Origin: Haemophilus influenzae
GTDB taxonomy: Bacteria > Pseudomonadota > Gammaproteobacteria > Enterobacterales > Pasteurellaceae
DNA: 64,000 nt
Assembly (NCBI RefSeq): GCF_900475755.1
Contig: NZ_LS483411.1
Coordinates: 1,736,001 to 1,800,000, forward strand
Direction: 5' to 3'
The notes beneath the pieces were generated by a model. It saw only the letters and a program-made list of their open reading frames with translations. It was not told the DNA's origin and did not search any database. The position numbers and the translations under genes were made by a program. Position 1 is the stretch's first letter. Every line of letters starts with the position of its first letter. Positions 35,684-44,544 of this stretch are shown here, one piece after another.

Positions 35684-35836
35684 TTATTTTTCATTTTTGA
35701 TATTGGAGAAAATATTTGCCAAAATTGGACCCGATACATTGTGCCAGAAACTAAATAAAGCACTTGGTACCGTTGCAATTGGGTTGAAATGTGTGGCAGC
35801 CAGTGCGGCGCCTAAACCTGAGTTTTTGTTAAAAAG
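35684..35836 (-). pseudogene. C-terminal fragment of a bile acid:sodium symporter-like transporter
   Basis: About 50 residues remain, with [20 protein letters not shown] and [20 protein letters not shown], the end of BASS family transporters. Upstream sequence (35837-35904) has no homology to that family. The N-terminal domains are absent, so it is a deletion remnant between the prophage end and sapF. Confidence 0.7.
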
Positions 35837-35904
35837 AATGAAAAGAGCGGTCAATTTAAAGACGTTTTTTGAGATGTCTATCCCTAACTTGTATTTATAG
35901 GTGG

Positions 35905-36195
35905 CTAGGAAGTGTTTATTTGCCAAGCATTTTCATCAAGCAATTGACCAAAATGACTTTCTACAAGAAGGCGAGTGATGTTATTTTGAGGATTAGTGAA
36001 GCTCTCTCTTGGTGTACCCGATTCGATAATTTCACCTTGATCCATCACCAAGACTTGATCAGCAATGTGTTTGATAATGCCTAAGTTTTGCCCTACATAA
36101 ATATAGGAAAGCCCCAAATGTTCTTGTAAATCTAAAATTAAGTTAAGTAATTGAACACGTACAGAAGCATCTAATGCGCTAAGAACATCATCATT
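35905..36195 (-). pseudogene. sapF: SapF ATPase, 3' part (separated by IS element)
   Basis: Reads [40 protein letters not shown] and ends with [10 protein letters not shown]. It continues in frame from 38006, so removing 36196-38005 restores a protein of 268 residues. It holds the end of Walker B, the D-loop and the H-loop region (a Gln replaces the usual His in YVGQN). The gene expected next in the known sap operon, sapZ, is not present downstream. Confidence 0.92.
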
Positions 36196-36332
36196 GACAT
36201 CCTCCCCGCCCTAAAGGACGGGGATTCCTACTAGCTCCCACGCTTTGCGTGGGTTACTCTCGGTGGGTTCTTGTTGCTGACCTCTATTGAGATTCACTTC
36301 ACAAGCTCTACGGCTGTGTCCCAGCCTATATT
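36196..36332 (-). ncRNA. Predicted omega RNA region at the tnpB end
   Basis: 137 bases between the tnpB stop and the element end, containing two strong hairpins. TnpB guide RNAs come from the tnpB 3' end and the adjacent right end, with the guide read from flanking DNA. Here the guide would begin AATGATGATGTTCTTAGC inside sapF. This is inferred from family knowledge. Confidence 0.6.
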
Positions 36333-37469
36333 TTACGCTTGGACGATAGCTCGCCCACGCTCCAAAACGTTTAACGCCCCGACCACATCCGCATTTTCTG
36401 TGTAGTCACATTCTAAGCATTCAAAATCAGCCTGAGTTTGGCGATTTTCCTTTGCGGTATAACCGCAACAAGGGCAAGTTCGACTGGTGTTCTGAGGCGG
36501 GACAGCCACTAAAAAACCACCTAGCCATTGCGTTTTATAGTCCAATTGACGGCGGAACTCGAACCAAGATTGGTCTAATATCGCTCGGTTCAAACCTGAT
36601 TTCTGTTTCACATTTTTACCATGATCTTCCGCTGTGCCTTTGGCTGATTTGGACATATTCAACACCTGTAAATCTTCAACGTAGATCATTGCGTGGTTTT
36701 TGCTGATTTTGCTTGAAGTTTGGTGCAAGAAGTCTTTACGACAGTTAGCGATTTTGTGGTGCAATTTAGCGATTTTCGCCTTTAATTTCTGCCAGTTTTG
36801 GCTAAATTTAATCTTGTTTTTAAGTTGGCGTTGTAGTTTTGCTAGTTTGCCTTTGTGGGTTTTAAAGGCATTCAACGGCTTAAAATATTCACCGCTTGAA
36901 AGCGTTGCAAAACGGGCAACGCCCATATCTATCCCAATTTCTCCGCCTTGATGTGTTGGGATTTCATATTCAAATTCCGTTTGAATACTGGCAAAAAAAC
37001 GACCGCACTTTTGGCTAACTGTGACGTTTTTAATTTCGCCGACGACATCACGGCTGTTGCGATAACGAACCCAACCGATTTTCGGGAGATACAAGCGGTT
37101 GTTTTGTTGTTCCAGTTTGCAACCTTGCGGAAAACGAAAGCTCTCTTTCAAGCCTTTTTTCTTGAACTTCGGGAAGTCAGCACGCTTTTGAAAGAAGTTT
37201 TTGAACGCACTTTCAAGATCTTTCAGACTTTGCTGTAAAACTTGACTGTGGCAGTCTTTGAGCCAAATCAGTTCTTTTTTCCATTGCGGAAGCAGATTGG
37301 CTATTTTCGTATAACTGAATTTGACGCTGCGATCTTGCTCATATTGCTCATTCTGCCAAGCCAACGCCCGATTGAAGACAAAACGAGAGCAACCACAGAA
37401 CTGCTTAATTCTGCGGATTTGTTCGCCGTTTGGCATTATTTCGAACTTAAAGGCTTTGCGTAGTTGCAT
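36333..37469 (-). CDS. tnpB: TnpB RNA-guided nuclease
   Basis: 378 residues from the ATG at 37469. RuvC-like active site residues are all present: GIDMGVARFATLS (Asp), MIYVEDLQVLNMS (Glu) and ENADVVGALNVLERG (Asp). The zinc finger CPCCGYTAKENRQTQ with a second pair CLECDY is complete. N-terminal helix-turn-helix: YKIAN-type region. It is divergent from tnpA with the two starts 45 bases apart. It contains an uptake sequence at 37002-37010. It looks functional, so it may cleave sapF alleles that lack the element. Confidence 0.93.
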   Translation of the reverse strand: MQLRKAFKFEIMPNGEQIRRIKQFCGCSRFVFNRALAWQNEQYEQDRSVKFSYTKIANLLPQWKKELIWLKDCHSQVLQQSLKDLESAFKNFFQKRADFPKFKKKGLKESFRFPQGCKLEQQNNRLYLPKIGWVRYRNSRDVVGEIKNVTVSQKCGRFFASIQTEFEYEIPTHQGGEIGIDMGVARFATLSSGEYFKPLNAFKTHKGKLAKLQRQLKNKIKFSQNWQKLKAKIAKLHHKIANCRKDFLHQTSSKISKNHAMIYVEDLQVLNMSKSAKGTAEDHGKNVKQKSGLNRAILDQSWFEFRRQLDYKTQWLGGFLVAVPPQNTSRTCPCCGYTAKENRQTQADFECLECDYTENADVVGALNVLERGRAIVQA

Positions 37470-37514
37470 TGGCAAGGTTTAGAATATGATTTTCCCACAT
37501 TCTACACTTGGTCT

Positions 37515-37931
37515 ATGAAAAAAGAAACTGAAATCAGACACGGCAGGCATTGTGTTTTTAATATGCACGTTCACTTAGTCTTTGTTACAAAATACCGCCG
37601 TGATGTTTTTACGAAAGCGATTTTAGATGATCTCAATTTGATTTTCGAAAGCGTCTGCAATGATTTTGAAGCAAAATTAGTCGAGTTTGACGGCGAAGAC
37701 GATCACGTTCATTTACTCATTGAATATCCGCCGAAAGTGGCAGTTTCTACGCTAGTAAACAGCCTAAAAGGTGTATCAAGTCGAATGATTAGAAAGAAAA
37801 ATTACCCAAGTATCCGAAAAAAACTTTGGGGCAATCAGCTTTGGTCGCCCTCTTATTTTGCCGGTAGTTGCGGTGGTGCACCTATTTCAATTATTCGCCA
37901 ATACATCGAGCAACAACAAACACCCGATTAG
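37515..37931 (+). CDS. tnpA: TnpA transposase (Y1, IS200/IS605 type)
   Basis: 138 residues from ATG 37515 (an upstream frame start at 37464 overlaps tnpB). HUH motif DHVHLLIEYPP near residue 65, and the C-terminal helix with SYFAGSCGGAPISIIRQYIE carries the tyrosine expected to be catalytic. TnpA moves the element as single-stranded DNA by cutting next to a short target. Complete length and motifs suggest activity. Confidence 0.93.
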   Translation: MKKETEIRHGRHCVFNMHVHLVFVTKYRRDVFTKAILDDLNLIFESVCNDFEAKLVEFDGEDDHVHLLIEYPPKVAVSTLVNSLKGVSSRMIRKKNYPSIRKKLWGNQLWSPSYFAGSCGGAPISIIRQYIEQQQTPD

Positions 37932-38005
37932 TTAGCTTTGAAACGGCTACGCCGTTTGTGCCTTATATCTCCGCCCTGAAGGACGGAGTTTTACTGCACA
38001 GGGCT

Positions 38006-38521
38006 GATAATAATAATTTCAGGCTGAAGAATCAGTGCGCGAGCTAAGGCGATCCGCTGTTTTTGGCTCATTGAGAGATGTTTAATTTTAAGATTAGTAT
38101 AATCGGGATAAAGTCCCACTAATGAAAGCGTTTCAAAGATCTTTTGATTGCGTGTTTCTTCATCCCAATCGGTAATTAATTTCAATGGTGCGTCTAAGGC
38201 TTGTCCTATATTTAAGCGAGGGTTAAATGCTGAATTCGCATCTTGGAAAACCATTCGGATATGCTGTGCTCGATTATGAAAATCTTCAAATTGTAACGGT
38301 AAATCATTGAATAATATTTTTCCTGAAGTTGGGGGGGGAATCCCTGCGATCATTTTAACTAAGGTTGATTTACCCGAACCATTTTTACCAATGATCGCAA
38401 GCGTTTCTTTGCGATTAAGTGAAAAGCTTATCTCTTTTACTGCATAAAACTGCTCTGTACCAAAAAATTTAGCCGGACCTTCAAAGGTTTTGCTAAGATT
38501 TTCCACTTGTAGTAAAGGCAT
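38006..38521 (-). pseudogene. sapF: SapF ATPase, 5' part (interrupted by IS element)
   Basis: 172 codons from ATG 38521: Walker [16 protein letters not shown] near residue 42, Q-loop [10 protein letters not shown], and the signature [16 protein letters not shown], then Walker B PEIIII before the element. Beyond the junction the frame ends after three codons plus Gln. SapF is the second ATPase of the Sap peptide/potassium uptake system. The start overlaps sapD by one base (TAATG). Confidence 0.93.
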
Positions 38522-39574
38522 TATTCACTTCCTTTTGATTCTGTATTGAGCGTAAGTGGTGACGTTGTCATTTTATCTTTAAACTGCCTTTCTCGGATAT
38601 TTATTGGATGATGGCAGGAAAACTCGTGCTGTTTAATGCGATATCGGCTTGGCTTTTGAATACATTCACGTTGTGCGAAAGGACAGCGAGGCCCTAATCG
38701 ACACCCCATCGGCATTTGTTCCAGAATGGGGACAATGCCTTCCAATGTTCCCAATCGGCTTTTAAAACTTAAGGGGCGACTAAAGTCGGGAACTGAGTAG
38801 AGTAATGCTTGTGTATAAGGATGATGAGGCATTTCTAATAATTGCTCGGTTGGGCCAGACTCTGTATTTTGACCACAATAAAGCACAGAAATGCTATCAC
38901 ACCATTCACTAATACTTTTCAGATCATTACTCGCTAATAAAATCGTTGTGCCTTGGTTTTGATTCATGCTTGAAAGTAAGCGGAAAATTTGTAATGCTGT
39001 AATTGACTCCAAAGAATTGGTGGGCTCATCCGCAATTAATAAGCGAGGCTGATTTGCAATCGCTACTGCGATCATGACTTTTTGACCTTCACCTTCTGTG
39101 AGATCGTCAGGATAATGCCATAATGTCCAGGTGATCTTTAATACCTACACGGTGTAGTAATTCAATTGCTCGACGTTTTTTCCAGCCGAACCATTGCCAC
39201 CAATGACCTTTAAATGTCCAGTTCGGAATACTCTGAATAAGCTGTTTGCCGATTCTTCGGCTTGAATCTAGGTAGCTTAATGGATTTTGGAAAATCATTG
39301 AAATTTCTTTACCAACGATTTTTCGACGTTGATTCGGTGTTAGTTTAAGTAATTCAACATCATTAAAACGAAAACGGTCAGCCGTAACAATCCAGTTATC
39401 TTTAATGGAATTACTGATTATTTTAGCGATTAAACTTTTACCGGAACCGGATTCACCAACAAGTCCTAGAATTTCCCCTTCATTGACTGAAAGATTGACG
39501 CCGTCCACAATTTTTATACGGCCGTTTGGTGTTTGAATTTCAATATTAAGATTGCGAATATCTAACAGCGCCAT
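38521..39574 (-). pseudogene. sapD: SapD ATPase, frameshifted
   Basis: The first 155 codons (Walker [16 protein letters not shown] near residue 38) run into TGA at 39109-39107 after DIMALS. The continuation in the next frame, starting [20 protein letters not shown] (the ABC signature LTEGE region) and ADEPTNSLE, stays open to 38521. The length is 1 modulo 3, so one added or two lost bases near 39112-39124 explain it. The C-terminal cysteine-rich part ([16 protein letters not shown]) is typical. The ATPase is split exactly between Walker A and the signature, so it would be inactive. Confidence 0.9.
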
Positions 39575-39577
39575 GGG

Positions 39578-40465
39578 TTACTCGTAATATTTATTGATTG
39601 CTTTACACAATCCGTTAGTAAAAATAATGCTCAATAAAATGGTAAAAATAATAGCAAAACCGGGTAATAACACTGTCCATGGTGCAAGATAAATTAATTC
39701 TAATGAATCTTTAATCATTGCGCCCCATTCAGGCATTGGACGTTGTGCACCTAGAGAAATAAAGCTTAATGCTGCAATATCTAAAATAGCAACCACAAAT
39801 GCACGGGCGATTTCTTGCGTATAGGTAACACTAATATTCGGCAAAATGGTGCTTTTTAATAGCTCCCAGTTTGAAATCCCATCTAATCTTAGTAAGAGAA
39901 CATAGTCTTTCTTCAGCTCTTGTTGAATGGCTTGATAAATGGCATGTACAAAATACGGCAAAATAGCTAATAGGGTAGCAAATATGGCATTCATCAAGCT
40001 CGGTTCCATTAATGTTGAAATGATAATGGCAATCAACAAAATAGGAATGGATAAAAACGCATCAAAAATATGGCCTAAGACACGAAATTTAATCCCTTCT
40101 GACATGCCCGCAAGAATACCTAATGCACCACCAATAATCGCTACAGCAATGACGACTAAAAGAGATGAACCAAGGGTATAGTGCGTTCCCATGATGAGTC
40201 GACTGAATACATCACGACCGAGATCATCGGTTCCAAAGAAAAAGGCAATACGGCCTTTTTCGACCCAAGATGGCGGCATCAATTCTTCTCCCACAAATTC
40301 CATGCTTTCGTTATAAGGCATGATTAGCTTGGGAAAAAGTGCGATAAAAATAAGAAAAACAAATAAATAGAAACTAAATAACGCTACACGATTTTGACGA
40401 AAAAGCAACCAAATCTGAAAAAAGGAGGTACTTTCACGAAATTCATCAGGTTCTCTATCTTGCAT
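39578..40465 (-). CDS. sapC: SapC inner membrane permease
   Basis: 295 residues, DppC-like permease of the Sap ABC transporter, for antimicrobial peptide uptake and resistance. About six membrane spans (for example VALFSFYLFVFLIFIALFP near residue 30). The EAA-type loop that contacts the ATPases is around residue 200 (LLLRLDGISNWELLKSTILP). Overlaps sapB by 11 bases. It is intact although its ATPases are not. Confidence 0.92.
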   Translation of the reverse strand: MQDREPDEFRESTSFFQIWLLFRQNRVALFSFYLFVFLIFIALFPKLIMPYNESMEFVGEELMPPSWVEKGRIAFFFGTDDLGRDVFSRLIMGTHYTLGSSLLVVIAVAIIGGALGILAGMSEGIKFRVLGHIFDAFLSIPILLIAIIISTLMEPSLMNAIFATLLAILPYFVHAIYQAIQQELKKDYVLLLRLDGISNWELLKSTILPNISVTYTQEIARAFVVAILDIAALSFISLGAQRPMPEWGAMIKDSLELIYLAPWTVLLPGFAIIFTILLSIIFTNGLCKAINKYYE

Positions 40466-41420
40466 ACCATCCCTTCTTATTAAATGGATCTAATATAAAC
40501 ATGAGTAATTTGGCTAAGGTATCAATAATGATTATACAAATACCAATTACCACTACACCGGCAGAAATGCTATTGTAATCTTGTTGGGTTACAGCATTTA
40601 TGAGCCAAAGTCCAATACCAGGCCAGCCTAAGACTGTCTCTACTAGCATACATTGTGTTAACACTAAGGTAAATACACGAGTAAACTGTGGAATTAATAA
40701 TGGAAATGTATTTCGAAAAACATAACGTCTTAAGATCATCCATTTTGACCATCCACGAGTTACTGCTGCTTTAGCATATTCTTGCTGAAGTAGATAATTT
40801 GCTCGTTGTTGAATAATACGGATAAATTCCATTGTTGGTAGAATGCAAAGCACCAATGTGGGCAAGGCTAAATGTTGTAAAACGTTCTGTACTATTTTTG
40901 TTCGGTAAGTCACATCTAAAAACCACATATCAATGATGGGAAAACCTGTTATTGGTTTGATTTCATAGAGTAAATTATATTGTCCAATTGCTGCAATTTC
41001 CCAATTTTGAATTGCTGCAACATAAAGCAAAATAGGGGCTAACCAGAAACTAGGAATCGATAAACCAACATTCGAGATACTTTGCAATGTTCGTGAAAAA
41101 GCACCTTGATTATAGACCGCACTTAATACACCCAAAGGAATACTTAAAAGACAAGCTAATAAGAGCGCAGTAAAGCAGAGTTCTAATGTGGGTGGTAAGA
41201 CGGTGAAAATTAAATCTTTTAAGGATTTTCCGCCGTTATAAGTAATGCCCAAATCGCCTTGTAATAATGATGTTAAATAGTGATAGTAAGTACTATAAAT
41301 ATTATTGGTAATAAGAGCAGCATTAAGCGGATCACGCATTAAAATGACAAAGCTTAGCAAAGAGAGAATCAATAATAAGATAATCACCCAAACTATATGT
41401 CTAATTGCTGAAAGGAGCAT
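40455..41420 (-). CDS. sapB: SapB inner membrane permease
   Basis: 321 residues, DppB-like. The N-terminal membrane span (IRHIVWVIILLLILSLLSFV) and the EAA-type loop AKAAVTRGWSKWMILRRYVF near residue 220 are clear; the final stretch ends DPFNKKGWYAR. It pairs with SapC. ATG overlaps the original sapA stop (TAATG), which lies in a shifted frame here, so coupling of translation would be lost. Confidence 0.92.
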   Translation of the reverse strand: MLLSAIRHIVWVIILLLILSLLSFVILMRDPLNAALITNNIYSTYYHYLTSLLQGDLGITYNGGKSLKDLIFTVLPPTLELCFTALLLACLLSIPLGVLSAVYNQGAFSRTLQSISNVGLSIPSFWLAPILLYVAAIQNWEIAAIGQYNLLYEIKPITGFPIIDMWFLDVTYRTKIVQNVLQHLALPTLVLCILPTMEFIRIIQQRANYLLQQEYAKAAVTRGWSKWMILRRYVFRNTFPLLIPQFTRVFTLVLTQCMLVETVLGWPGIGLWLINAVTQQDYNSISAGVVVIGICIIIIDTLAKLLMFILDPFNKKGWYAR

Positions 41421-43119
41421 TATTTTTTCTCCTTAGTTTTCATAAAATATAAAGTAGAAAAATTGATGCTACCAAATGGTGTCATTTCTATGCCTTTTAC
41501 GTGCCACTTGCGACTAAAAGTCGTTGAACGTTTGCAATTGGCACAATAGGTAATTCATTTAAAATAAGTTCTTGTGCGCTATTATAAGCTTTAGAACGCT
41601 CATATAAATGATTAGTCGACAGTGCACGATCCATCATCTTATCAAATTCAGGGTTACACCAATTTGATAAATTTGTGATTTCATTTTGAGTATCACAACT
41701 TAAAATCGGGCGCATAAAACCATCAGGATCAAGGTTTCCTGCAAGCCACCCCGTTAAAATCAAATCGTAATCTTCAGTGTGATTGCGTAATTGTTCGGTT
41801 AAAAATGTACGTGTGACTGACCGCACTTTAACATCCACTCCAACCTTTGCTAAATCCCATTTGATAAGTTCAGCCATTTTAATGGGGGCAGGATTATATA
41901 CTTGCTCTTCGTTTATTACCCACATTTTCAATGCTAATTTCTTATCTCGTAAGATTTTTTCCGCTTTTGAAGGCTGATAATCATAAGTAAAATCAGGTGT
42001 GTTAATCGCCGAAGCCCAAGAAATATCAGGAATAATATTATTCGCTACAGTTGCCGTGTTATGATAAATGTTTCGTACAATTCTAAAACGGTTTAAGCTT
42101 TGCGAAATGGCTTGACGAATAGTTTTATCCTGCATTAACGATTTTTGAAAATTGAAAGCTAAATAAGCTAAATTCATCCCTTCTGTTGATTGTAAATAAT
42201 AAGAGGCATTTTTTTCACTTAACAAACCAAGTTGGCTGATTTCTGGAGAAGAAGCAATCTGACATTCATTATTAAAGAATTTTATTAAACGACCACTGCG
42301 CTCAGCTGAAAGATCTACAATAATATTTTTAATTTTGGCTTCTTTTTTCCAATACTCCTCATTACGTATTAAGCGAACATATTGATTATAAACGTAGTCT
42401 TTTACTTGGTACGGCCCCGTGCCGACAGGATGAGTATCCAATTGGGAGAGGTTATCATCAGCACTTAATTGGTATGCATATTCTTGCGAGAAAATAATAG
42501 AGTATTGACTGGCAAGATGCGACAGAATTGAGGCATCAGGTTCAAACAGTTCAATTTTGACCTGATAAGGATTCGTTGCTGTGATACTTTTAATTTTTTG
42601 ATTCAGCTTAATACTTTCAAAATAGGGAAAGTGAACCTTCTTGGCTTGCTCGTGAAAGATTCTATATTGTGGATTTTTATAGGTTACTACATCGTCTGAA
42701 AGTGTCGGTAGATAAGTATCATGCCCTAAAACACGATTAATCGAAAAGACCACATCTTCTGCATTAAACTCACGTGTTGGGGTAAACCAAGGCGTACGAT
42801 GGAATTTCACCCCTTGACGAAGATTAATGAGAATTTGTTTGCCATCAGATGAAATTGAATAGGATTGTGCTAACACAGGAACAAGTGCTGCACTGTGGTC
42901 TTTCATATCAAACAATTTGTTATAAATTTGCTCCGTCACCACATTCATACTGGTACCTGCGTCTGCAGTTTGCGGGTTAAAGGAAAAACCCGATGCATTT
43001 GTGCAGTATGTTAAGCCATTTTCTGTCAGCATTTTAGGTATGCGCGGGGCAGCTTGTGCCAGATTAATTAGGCTCAACCCACACAATAAAAAACAAAAAG
43101 TGACATTTCGATGTAACAT
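41420..43119 (-). pseudogene. sapA: SapA periplasmic peptide-binding protein, 3' frameshift
   Basis: The open frame gives 540 residues with a signal peptide (MLHRNVTFCFLLCGLSLINL then AQA-A) and an extracellular solute-binding family 5 body. It ends NVQRLLVASGT at 41497. In the next frame the expected end VKGIEMTPFGSINFSTLYFM continues to TAA at 41422-41420, overlapping sapB ATG. One base lost near 41500-41508 explains it. The missing 25 C-terminal residues include a core strand, so folding may be impaired. Confidence 0.85.
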
Positions 43120-43155
43120 AGCTTTATTATTAAAGACCGTTTTTTGATAAATTGA

Positions 43156-44544
43156 GTGAATTGTAAAATAATCAATCGTGGATTTGACCGCACTTTGCGC
43201 TTGGCTGTAACCGGGTTAAGTCGAAGCGGTAAAACGGCTTTTATTACGAGTTTGATTAATCAACTGTTACATATTAATCAAGAGGAAAATGCTCATCTTC
43301 CTTTATTTGAGGCTGCCCGAAATCAGTCTATTTTGGCGGTAAAACGAGTGCCTCAACAGGATTTAAGTATTCCACGTTTTGATTATGAAGCGAATCTCAA
43401 TGATTTAGTGAATAATCCACCACAATGGTGCCAATCTACTCGAGGGGTGAGTGAAACACGTCTTGCTATTCGTTTTGAACGTCAATCGGGCTTACTTCGT
43501 CATTTTAAAGAACGTGGCACATTATACTTGGATATTTTCGATTATCCTGGTGAATGGCTATTGGATTTACCTTTGCTGAATCTAGATTTTCAACAATGGT
43601 CACTTGAACAAGCTAAAATTACATCGGGTATTCGCCAACAGTTTGCCCAAGAGTGGTTGGATAAACTGAAAAAGCTCGACTTAAGTGCGGTCGTCAATGA
43701 AGATGTTTTAGCGCAGATTGCAAAATCTTATACCGACTATTTACTTGCTTGCAAAGCAGAAGGAATGCAATTTATTCAACCAGGCCGATTTGTCTTGCCT
43801 GGGGAATTAGAAGTCGCACCTGTTTTGCAATTTTTCCCGTTATTGCATTTGTCGGAAGAACAATGGCAAAAACTGAAAAGAGAGGCGAAATCCAATAGCT
43901 ATTTTGCCGTGTTAAATAAACGATATGATTATTATCGTAATAAGGTGGTGAAAGGCTTTTATGAAAATTATTTTTCTACTTTTGATCGCCAAGTAATTTT
44001 AGCGGATTGCTTAACGCCACTGAATCATAGCCAACAAGCCTTTATTGATATGCAAACAGGTCTTAATGAGCTTTTCAAAAATTTCCGTTATGGGAAACGC
44101 AATTTACTTAATCGCTTGTTTTCCCCGAATATTGATAAGCTCATGTTTGTGGCAACAAAAGCCGATCATATCACGACAGATCAAATTCAAAACTTAATTA
44201 GTCTGATGCGCCAATTGGTGCAAGAAGGCGGTCGTCATGTAGAATTTGAAGGGATTGATACAGAATATACGGCAATTGCTGCGATTCGAGCGACAAAACA
44301 AGTTTTAGTTAATCAAAACGGTAAACAAATCAAAGCTATTCAAGGTGTGCGTTCTTTAGATAAACAACTGATTACACTTTATCCAGGATCTGTTCCAAGT
44401 AAACTACCTAATGCTGAGTTCTGGTCAAAACAATCTTTTGACTTTGATTCCTTTGAACCTCAAGTTTTACAACAAGGTGAAAGCATCCCGCATTTAAGAA
44501 TGGATGCAGTTTTACAGTTTTTATTGGCGGATAGGTTTGATTAA
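43156..44544 (+). CDS. ycjX: YcjX-family GTPase-like protein
   Basis: 462 residues, DUF463. Walker A VTGLSRSGKTAFITS near residue 18; IFDYPGEWLLDLPL near 130 is the DxxG-type region and FVATKADHIT the NKxD-like site. In enterobacteria it sits with ycjF in a stress (PspF-related) group; cell role not well known. The start is GTG at 43156 with no good ribosome site and is only 36 bases from sapA. Its TAA (44542-44544) overlaps the hcsB stop codon, so the two genes converge with no terminator. Confidence 0.88.
   Translation: MNCKIINRGFDRTLRLAVTGLSRSGKTAFITSLINQLLHINQEENAHLPLFEAARNQSILAVKRVPQQDLSIPRFDYEANLNDLVNNPPQWCQSTRGVSETRLAIRFERQSGLLRHFKERGTLYLDIFDYPGEWLLDLPLLNLDFQQWSLEQAKITSGIRQQFAQEWLDKLKKLDLSAVVNEDVLAQIAKSYTDYLLACKAEGMQFIQPGRFVLPGELEVAPVLQFFPLLHLSEEQWQKLKREAKSNSYFAVLNKRYDYYRNKVVKGFYENYFSTFDRQVILADCLTPLNHSQQAFIDMQTGLNELFKNFRYGKRNLLNRLFSPNIDKLMFVATKADHITTDQIQNLISLMRQLVQEGGRHVEFEGIDTEYTAIAAIRATKQVLVNQNGKQIKAIQGVRSLDKQLITLYPGSVPSKLPNAEFWSKQSFDFDSFEPQVLQQGESIPHLRMDAVLQFLLADRFD

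What the first reader, a model, noticed from the sequence alone, without database searches (positions are those of the whole stretch)
36196..38005. Intact IS200/IS605-type element with TnpB inside sapF could guide cleavage of the empty sapF allele
tnpA and tnpB both keep catalytic motifs. TnpB guides come from the element end plus flanking DNA, so the guide here would be sapF sequence starting AATGATGATGTTCTTAGC. An uninserted sapF from another strain would be a perfect target next to the insertion site, which could make the element spread by cut and repair when such DNA or cells are present. tnpB also holds an uptake sequence (37002-37010) that favours import by natural transformation, combining two routes of spread.
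Basis: partly seen in the sequence, partly recalled or inferred. Interest (0 to 1): 0.7.

Follow-up and report, generated by a model that had tools for sequence, protein, structure and literature searches.

The report
Jumping gene in a borrowed transporter
A complete, ordinary-type jumping gene carrying an RNA-guided DNA cutter sits in a spare transporter gene that this Haemophilus strain appears to have borrowed from a relative, and its guide RNA matches the uninterrupted form of that borrowed gene rather than the strain's own copy.

Summary
The element is real and looks complete: an IS200/IS605-family (IS605-type) insertion, window 36194-38006, with uninterrupted tnpA and tnpB, end hairpins, and a right-end RNA structure supported by covariation (19 of 33 pairs change on both sides; 0 of 500 shuffles as high). 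Four corrections follow. (1) The stated ends are 2 and 1 bases off; a natural empty site (G073) puts the guide at TGATGATGTTCTTAGC, not AATGATG. (2) The gene hit is not the host's own sapF but sap2F in a second sap operon, 97% identical to G073. This matches the published sap2 operon of H. influenzae type f, reported with short sap2D and sap2F and two transposases. The native sapF is uninterrupted and does not match the guide. (3) Relatives insert after TTTAT (25 of 27 ends); here it is ATTAT, so the empty site may be a weak TnpB target. (4) A perfect target was found in 1 of 140 family genomes (one per species), so spread into other species' sapF looks unlikely; same-species strains could not be searched. 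Re-cutting the element's own vacated site is the likelier role. The uptake sequence exists, but selection for it is not shown. Known kind; low to modest interest.

The parts
36194..38006 (-). Whole IS200/IS605-family (IS605-type) element, 1813 bp, no target duplication; strand given in tnpB sense
   Evidence: Two-piece match of the flanks to the contiguous empty site in G073, 44+44 bases at 100%, printed; ends agree with relatives
36333..37469 (-). tnpB, 378 aa RNA-guided endonuclease family, D/E/D and zinc-finger positions kept
   Evidence: Pfam and NCBIfam; alignment to TnpB chains 8bf8/8h1j
37515..37931 (+). tnpA, 138 aa Y1 HUH transposase
   Evidence: Pfam Y1_Tnp, NCBIfam NF033573; aligned with transposase chain 2xm3
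36194..36330 (-). Right-end (omega) RNA scaffold; the 5' limit is approximate (outermost supported pair at 36326)
   Evidence: Covariation on 26 copies: 97.7% of cells paired, 19 of 33 pairs change on both sides, 0 of 500 shuffles as high; all 33 pairs hold here; single-sequence fold z -4.7
36204..36223 (-). Right-end hairpin (also expected to be the TnpA recognition hairpin)
   Evidence: Helix 6
37969..37988 (-). Left-end hairpin
   Evidence: Read; similar in relatives
38007..38011 (-). Target-adjacent motif ATTAT (family consensus TTTAT)
   Evidence: 25 of 27 left ends have TTTAT, one has neither, the window has ATTAT
36174..36193 (-). Predicted guide TGATGATGTTCTTAGCGCAT (sap2F sequence just beyond the right end)
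   Evidence: Element boundary; that IS200/IS605 RNA scaffolds end at the element boundary is from PMC10711439 (passage seen)
38007..38521 (-). 5' part of sap2F (the ORF runs on into the element to 37991)
   Evidence: NCBIfam SapF model is the best match
35905..36193 (-). 3' part of sap2F
   Evidence: 93% match to G073 over 35824-36193; stop at 35905
37002..37010 (-). Hin-type uptake core AAGTGCGGT inside tnpB
   Evidence: kept in 21 of 29 aligned copies
37091..37099 (+). Apl-type uptake core ACAAGCGGT inside tnpB
   Evidence: kept in 17 of 29 copies, no link with host type

Best explanation
This is a complete IS605-type element of a group that moves between Pasteurellaceae genera. It landed in sap2F, a gene of a second sap operon of H. 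parainfluenzae-like origin. TnpA would peel the strand out between ATTAT and the TGTCAA end as a single-stranded circle and reseal the flanks. TnpB, loaded with the right-end RNA and the adjoining sap2F bases as guide, would then cut the vacated site (motif ATTAT, target TGATGATG...), so that repair from a chromosome still carrying the element puts it back. Shown here: anatomy, exact ends, guide, motif, intact frames, covarying RNA and foreign origin of the gene. Inferred: that the RNA is made, that TnpB accepts ATTAT, and that cutting leads to retention. Cutting of alleles in other cells is plausible only for near-identical sapF (G073-like) or an empty sap2F in other type f strains.
For: Ends and empty site; protein families and alignment with solved TnpB and Y1 transposases; RNA covariation; TnpB 95-96% identical in G128, G129, G008 (other genus codes) and G064 (same genus), with the window copy sister to that of Actinobacillus ureae (G008) at 100/100 support, although the window's sap2 region matches G008 at only 66% over a part of its length; foreign sap operon and uninterrupted native operon; one report that an archaeal TnpB is relaxed at motif positions -5 and -4 (PMC11043419, passages seen).
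Against: The motif is off consensus, so TnpB activity at this very site is uncertain. In the fold of the free RNA, guide bases 4-12 pair with the RNA's own tail AGGAUGUCA, which might lower activity. No transcript or activity data were available. The genome holds one full copy, plus a solo right end and a decayed fragment, so recent movement in this host is not shown.
Confidence: 0.72

Rival explanations
1. One reading: the element spreads as a homing drive by cutting the uninserted sapF of other strains and being copied in, helped by an uptake sequence.
For: A perfectly matching natural empty site exists in G073; the uptake core is present and the host genome is rich in it, 1480 copies against 36 for the reversed control.
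Against: Only G073 of 140 species genomes has a perfect target; the host's native sapF does not match; motif off consensus; none of the other nine same-genus genomes has a match within 3 mismatches. Other strains of the same species could not be searched, which leaves this open.
Confidence: 0.12
2. A dead-end copy: inserted by TnpA at a tolerated off-consensus site in a decaying foreign gene, where TnpB cannot cut efficiently and TnpA excises poorly, so the copy simply persists.
For: ATTAT is the only clear one-base departure among 27 left ends; sap2D is also split and the published type f operon has the same two short genes (PMC3928620); the 10 g21 sapF alleles read all carry ATTAT, so the motif was probably off consensus before insertion.
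Against: Position -5 is reported as relaxed for one archaeal TnpB (PMC11043419); both frames and all 33 RNA pairs remain intact in this copy.
Confidence: 0.3
3. TnpB here has been taken up by the host as a regulator or defence protein rather than serving the transposon.
For: Nothing specific; TnpB exaptation is known elsewhere (recalled).
Against: tnpA, both ends and the covarying right-end RNA are present, and related copies sit at unrelated sites.
Confidence: 0.02

Closest known systems
ISDra2 (IS200/IS605 family, Deinococcus radiodurans)
   Same: Y1 TnpA plus TnpB with D/E/D positions and zinc finger, right-end RNA, hairpin ends; its TnpB (8bf8) aligns with residues 4-370 at 167.6 bits
   Different: Motif TTTAT/ATTAT here; ISDra2 uses TTGAT (recalled)
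H. influenzae type f KR494 sap2 operon with transposases HifGL_000683/000684 (PMC3928620)
   Same: Second sap operon of H. parainfluenzae type next to a sodC-capsule locus and a prophage, short sap2D and sap2F, two transposase genes (passages seen)
   Different: That paper calls it a composite-transposon-like structure; its main text holds neither 'IS200' nor 'TnpB' (0 occurrences); ends, guide and motif are worked out here
Sulfolobus islandicus TnpB7 (PMC11043419, passages seen)
   Same: TnpB with a TTTAA motif; the guide begins right after the conserved right-end bases
   Different: Different host and protein; tested in the laboratory, this one is not

Membership tests
IS200/IS605 family, IS605 type | Y1 HUH transposase TnpA | tested here: met
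   PF01797 E 3.7e-45, NF033573 above cut-off; HUH and Tyr positions aligned with 2xm3
IS200/IS605 family, IS605 type | Subterminal hairpins, insertion 3' of a short motif, no target duplication | tested here: met
   Empty site in G073; hairpins and motif in relatives
Close group of relatives of this element | Insertion after TTTAT | tested here: not met
   ATTAT here against TTTAT in 25 of 27 left ends; a property of the insertion site, not of the element, so membership is not in doubt
RNA-guided TnpB nucleases | RuvC D/E/D residues and TNB zinc finger | tested here: met
   NF040570 and PF07282 above cut-off; aligned with 8bf8
RNA-guided TnpB nucleases | Structured right-end RNA ending at the element boundary | tested here: met
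   Covariation on 26 copies; expression not tested
RNA-guided TnpB nucleases | Guided cleavage next to the motif | not testable with these tools
   Needs biochemistry
Homing drive into empty alleles of other strains | Matching empty alleles common in likely recipients | tested here: inconclusive
   1 of 140 species genomes perfect; strains within a species could not be searched

The most novel reading that the evidence does not exclude
In naturally transformable Haemophilus, TnpB could guard the inserted allele: DNA that would cure the element by recombination carries exactly the sequence its guide recognises, so imported empty alleles are cut and the insertion survives. An off-consensus, weak motif could make this cutting specific and tolerable for the cell.
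Probability: 0.1. Interest if true: 0.6.

Novelty: new member of a known kind. Interest (0 to 1): 0.25.

Why it matters
It gives exact ends, guide, motif and RNA structure for a TnpB element in a Haemophilus genome, and a natural experiment: an insertion next to an off-consensus motif with a perfectly matched natural empty allele in another species. It also shows that the broken gene is a second, borrowed copy, so the host's own sap operon is uninterrupted.

Tried and rejected
Dual uptake sequences: tnpB holds both the Hin-type and the Apl-type 9-base core. The Hin core is kept in 21 of 29 aligned copies and ranks 55 of 1129 windows for conservation (46 of 493 among windows with like amino-acid conservation); the Apl core is kept in 17 of 29 (rank 170 of 1129; 7 of 218 among like windows). 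Hin core: 16 of 18 copies in Hin-type hosts against 5 of 11 in others (Fisher one-sided p 0.018, rows not independent; G128 and G129, with only 357 and 334 copies, were counted as Hin-type), but pairs independent on the tree cannot decide (median p 0.5). Apl core: 2 of 4 in Apl hosts against 15 of 25, no link. Selection for uptake is not shown.

Rfam: two matches below their gathering scores, HgcC (25.5 of 50 bits) and sot0042 (21.7 of 88); sot0042 is, from recall, itself a TnpB-overlapping RNA, so this weak match may be genuine kinship; not followed. Plasmids: 98 records match, none over 80% of the element; the 10 listed match 2-15% of it. Phages: no match in near mode. A first left-end count used a pattern that itself demanded .TTAT and held one chance hit (L076), so I used instead; there, four of 31 rows (L040, L042, L047, L048, in the ycjX-like gene) were dropped as chance and L025 was kept as an end without TTTAT. 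Of 38 pairs predicted I dropped five before the count (columns 19-22 with 171-174, and 143 with 168); none of the five had a two-sided change. L030, L075, L077 and L078 were but left out of the 29 rows as partial or not wholly aligned. G079 of the g21 group was not read at the insertion site. Structure prediction could not be run.

Full report
What is there. The window holds a 1813-bp element at 36194-38006. Its ends are fixed by a natural empty site: in genome G073 the bases that flank the element here are contiguous, 44+44 bases at 100% (printed). In tnpB sense the flank ends ...ATTATTATTAT, the element runs CAGCCC...GGATGTCAA, and the other flank begins TGATGATGTTCTTAGC. tnpA (37515-37931) and tnpB (36333-37469) are divergent, uninterrupted and belong to the Y1 transposase and guided TnpB families. 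Both align with solved family members over nearly their whole length.

The RNA. On 26 right ends aligned over 177 columns, RNAalifold predicts 38 pairs. For 33 of them (five without two-sided changes were left out) 97.7% of 854 cells form standard pairs and 19 pairs have changes on both sides; none of 500 shuffles reaches either figure, and sliding the partners by 1-3 columns drops pairing to 36-52%. All 33 pairs hold in the window copy. The structure was derived from this same alignment, which favours the paired percentage; the two-sided changes are the stronger evidence. The free RNA with 20 guide bases folds at z -4.7, but in that fold guide bases 4-12 pair with the RNA tail.

The motif. 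An anchor inside the left end gave 31 rows among the loci fetched by then and the window; four lie in an unrelated gene and were dropped. Of the 27 left ends, 25 have TTTAT directly before the element, one (L025) has neither, and the window has ATTAT. The ten sapF alleles read from the g21 group all have ATTAT there, so this is probably the original target, not a later mutation. A paper on an archaeal TnpB reports relaxed needs at positions -5 and -4 and editing at weak motifs (PMC11043419, passages seen), so ATTAT may be a usable weak motif; for this protein that is untested.

Which sapF. The gene hit is not the host's standard sapF. Window 38007-43170 is 97.4% identical to G073, which has another genus code, and about 75% to a second sap operon of the same genome at about 1148-1154 kb, where sapF (274 aa) and sapD (349 aa) are uninterrupted frames. 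The layout (prophage-like genes, sap operon, ycjX-like gene, capsule genes with a Stealth and a TagF-like protein, sodC) matches region RgDF1 of H. influenzae type f KR494, whose paper describes sap2ABCDF of H. parainfluenzae type, short sap2D and sap2F, and two transposases; its table gives sap2 in 19 of 20 further type f isolates and not in Hib MinnA or NTHi 3655 (PMC3928620, passages seen). No name is given for this genome or for G073: type f H. influenzae and H. parainfluenzae-like are inferences from layout, from that paper, and from a same-genus genome (G064) whose contig length equals that of the H. aegyptius NCTC8502 record. The split of sap2D is also seen here; it was described only.

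Targets of the guide. TTAT plus 20 guide bases, up to 3 mismatches, in 140 family genomes gave 6: G073 perfect and G081 with 2 mismatches (both sapF), G057, G100 and G109 with 3 at places not examined, and the window's own right-end/flank junction. The native sapF has motif ATAAT and differs at 5 of the first 16 guide bases (read). In the host genome, TTAT plus 12 guide bases gave 14 places with up to 2 mismatches, the element's own junction among them, none perfect and one with a single mismatch, against 6 for the reversed control. So perfect matching was found only for the G073 allele, which equals the joint that would be left when this element excises.

Spread of the element. TnpB matches occur in 26 of 140 family genomes, many of them fragments; 18 hold an uninterrupted frame covering at least 373 of 378 residues (counted). 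The 34 loci include Haemophilus aegyptius, Actinobacillus ureae, Avibacterium, Gallibacterium, Histophilus and Ursidibacter, outside the family Neisseria bergeri and Pelistega, and distant ones (33-53%) mostly in cyanobacteria. One locus is titled Pseudomonas stutzeri NCTC11607, but its contig length equals that of family genome G128, so the title is probably wrong. In a tree of 29 copies the window copy is sister to the A. ureae copy with full support, while the window's sap2 region matches that host (G008) at only 66% over a part: the element has moved between genera. Among the 120 best of 7629 scored proteins, most rows that bear an organism name are Gallibacterium anatis or Avibacterium paragallinarum; Oligella urethralis also appears at 93% (only 8000 candidates were scored).

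Uptake sequence. AAGTGCGGT is at 37002-37010 (minus strand), with a T-rich tail like that of extended uptake sequences (recalled). The host has 1480 copies, about one per 1.2 kb, so one in 1.8 kb is what any long-resident sequence would show. tnpB also holds ACAAGCGGT, the core of the other Pasteurellaceae type (recalled), which this host does not enrich (56 copies against 49 for the control). Tests for retention are weak for the first and negative for the second.

How it most likely works. By the scheme known for the family (recalled; the paper I looked for is not held), TnpA excises the element as a single-stranded circle and TnpB cuts the resealed site, so that repair from a copy still carrying the element keeps it. 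The parts needed are present; transcription, cutting at ATTAT and excision are inferred. Homing into other strains is a minor possibility on what could be searched. I found no paper on TnpB in Haemophilus that treats this element in searches, nor one joining TnpB and uptake sequences in searches (listings seen; open-licence library only). The finding is a well-preserved member of a known kind in a published locus, with some new detail.

Noticed in passing
L041:4239-4427 (G000:C1:498238-498426): A solo right end (89% identical over 189 bases, no tnpB beyond its tail) lies between a U32-peptidase-like gene and a DUF1778-like/GNAT pair that resembles a toxin-antitoxin system (gene names from recall); it could supply a second guide RNA to TnpB in trans.
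   Followed up: partly
window 38521-39075 and 39107-39574: sap2D is split into two frames matching the two halves of the SapD model; agrees with the short sap2D published for type f KR494. Described only.
   Followed up: partly
window 35824-35826: About 0.8 kb present in G073 downstream of sapF is missing here (matches jump from L040:9942 to 10746).
   Followed up: no
L070, L078 (Neisseria bergeri) and L071 (Pelistega indica): Relatives of this element in betaproteobacteria, one N. bergeri left end being 96% identical over 53 bases; contamination was not excluded.
   Followed up: partly
G051 and G054 (Gallibacterium): Uptake cores are scarce: Hin core 62 and 114 copies (controls 57 and 50), Apl core 36 and 27, far below the hundreds to thousands of one core in most other family genomes.
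   Followed up: no
   Followed up: no
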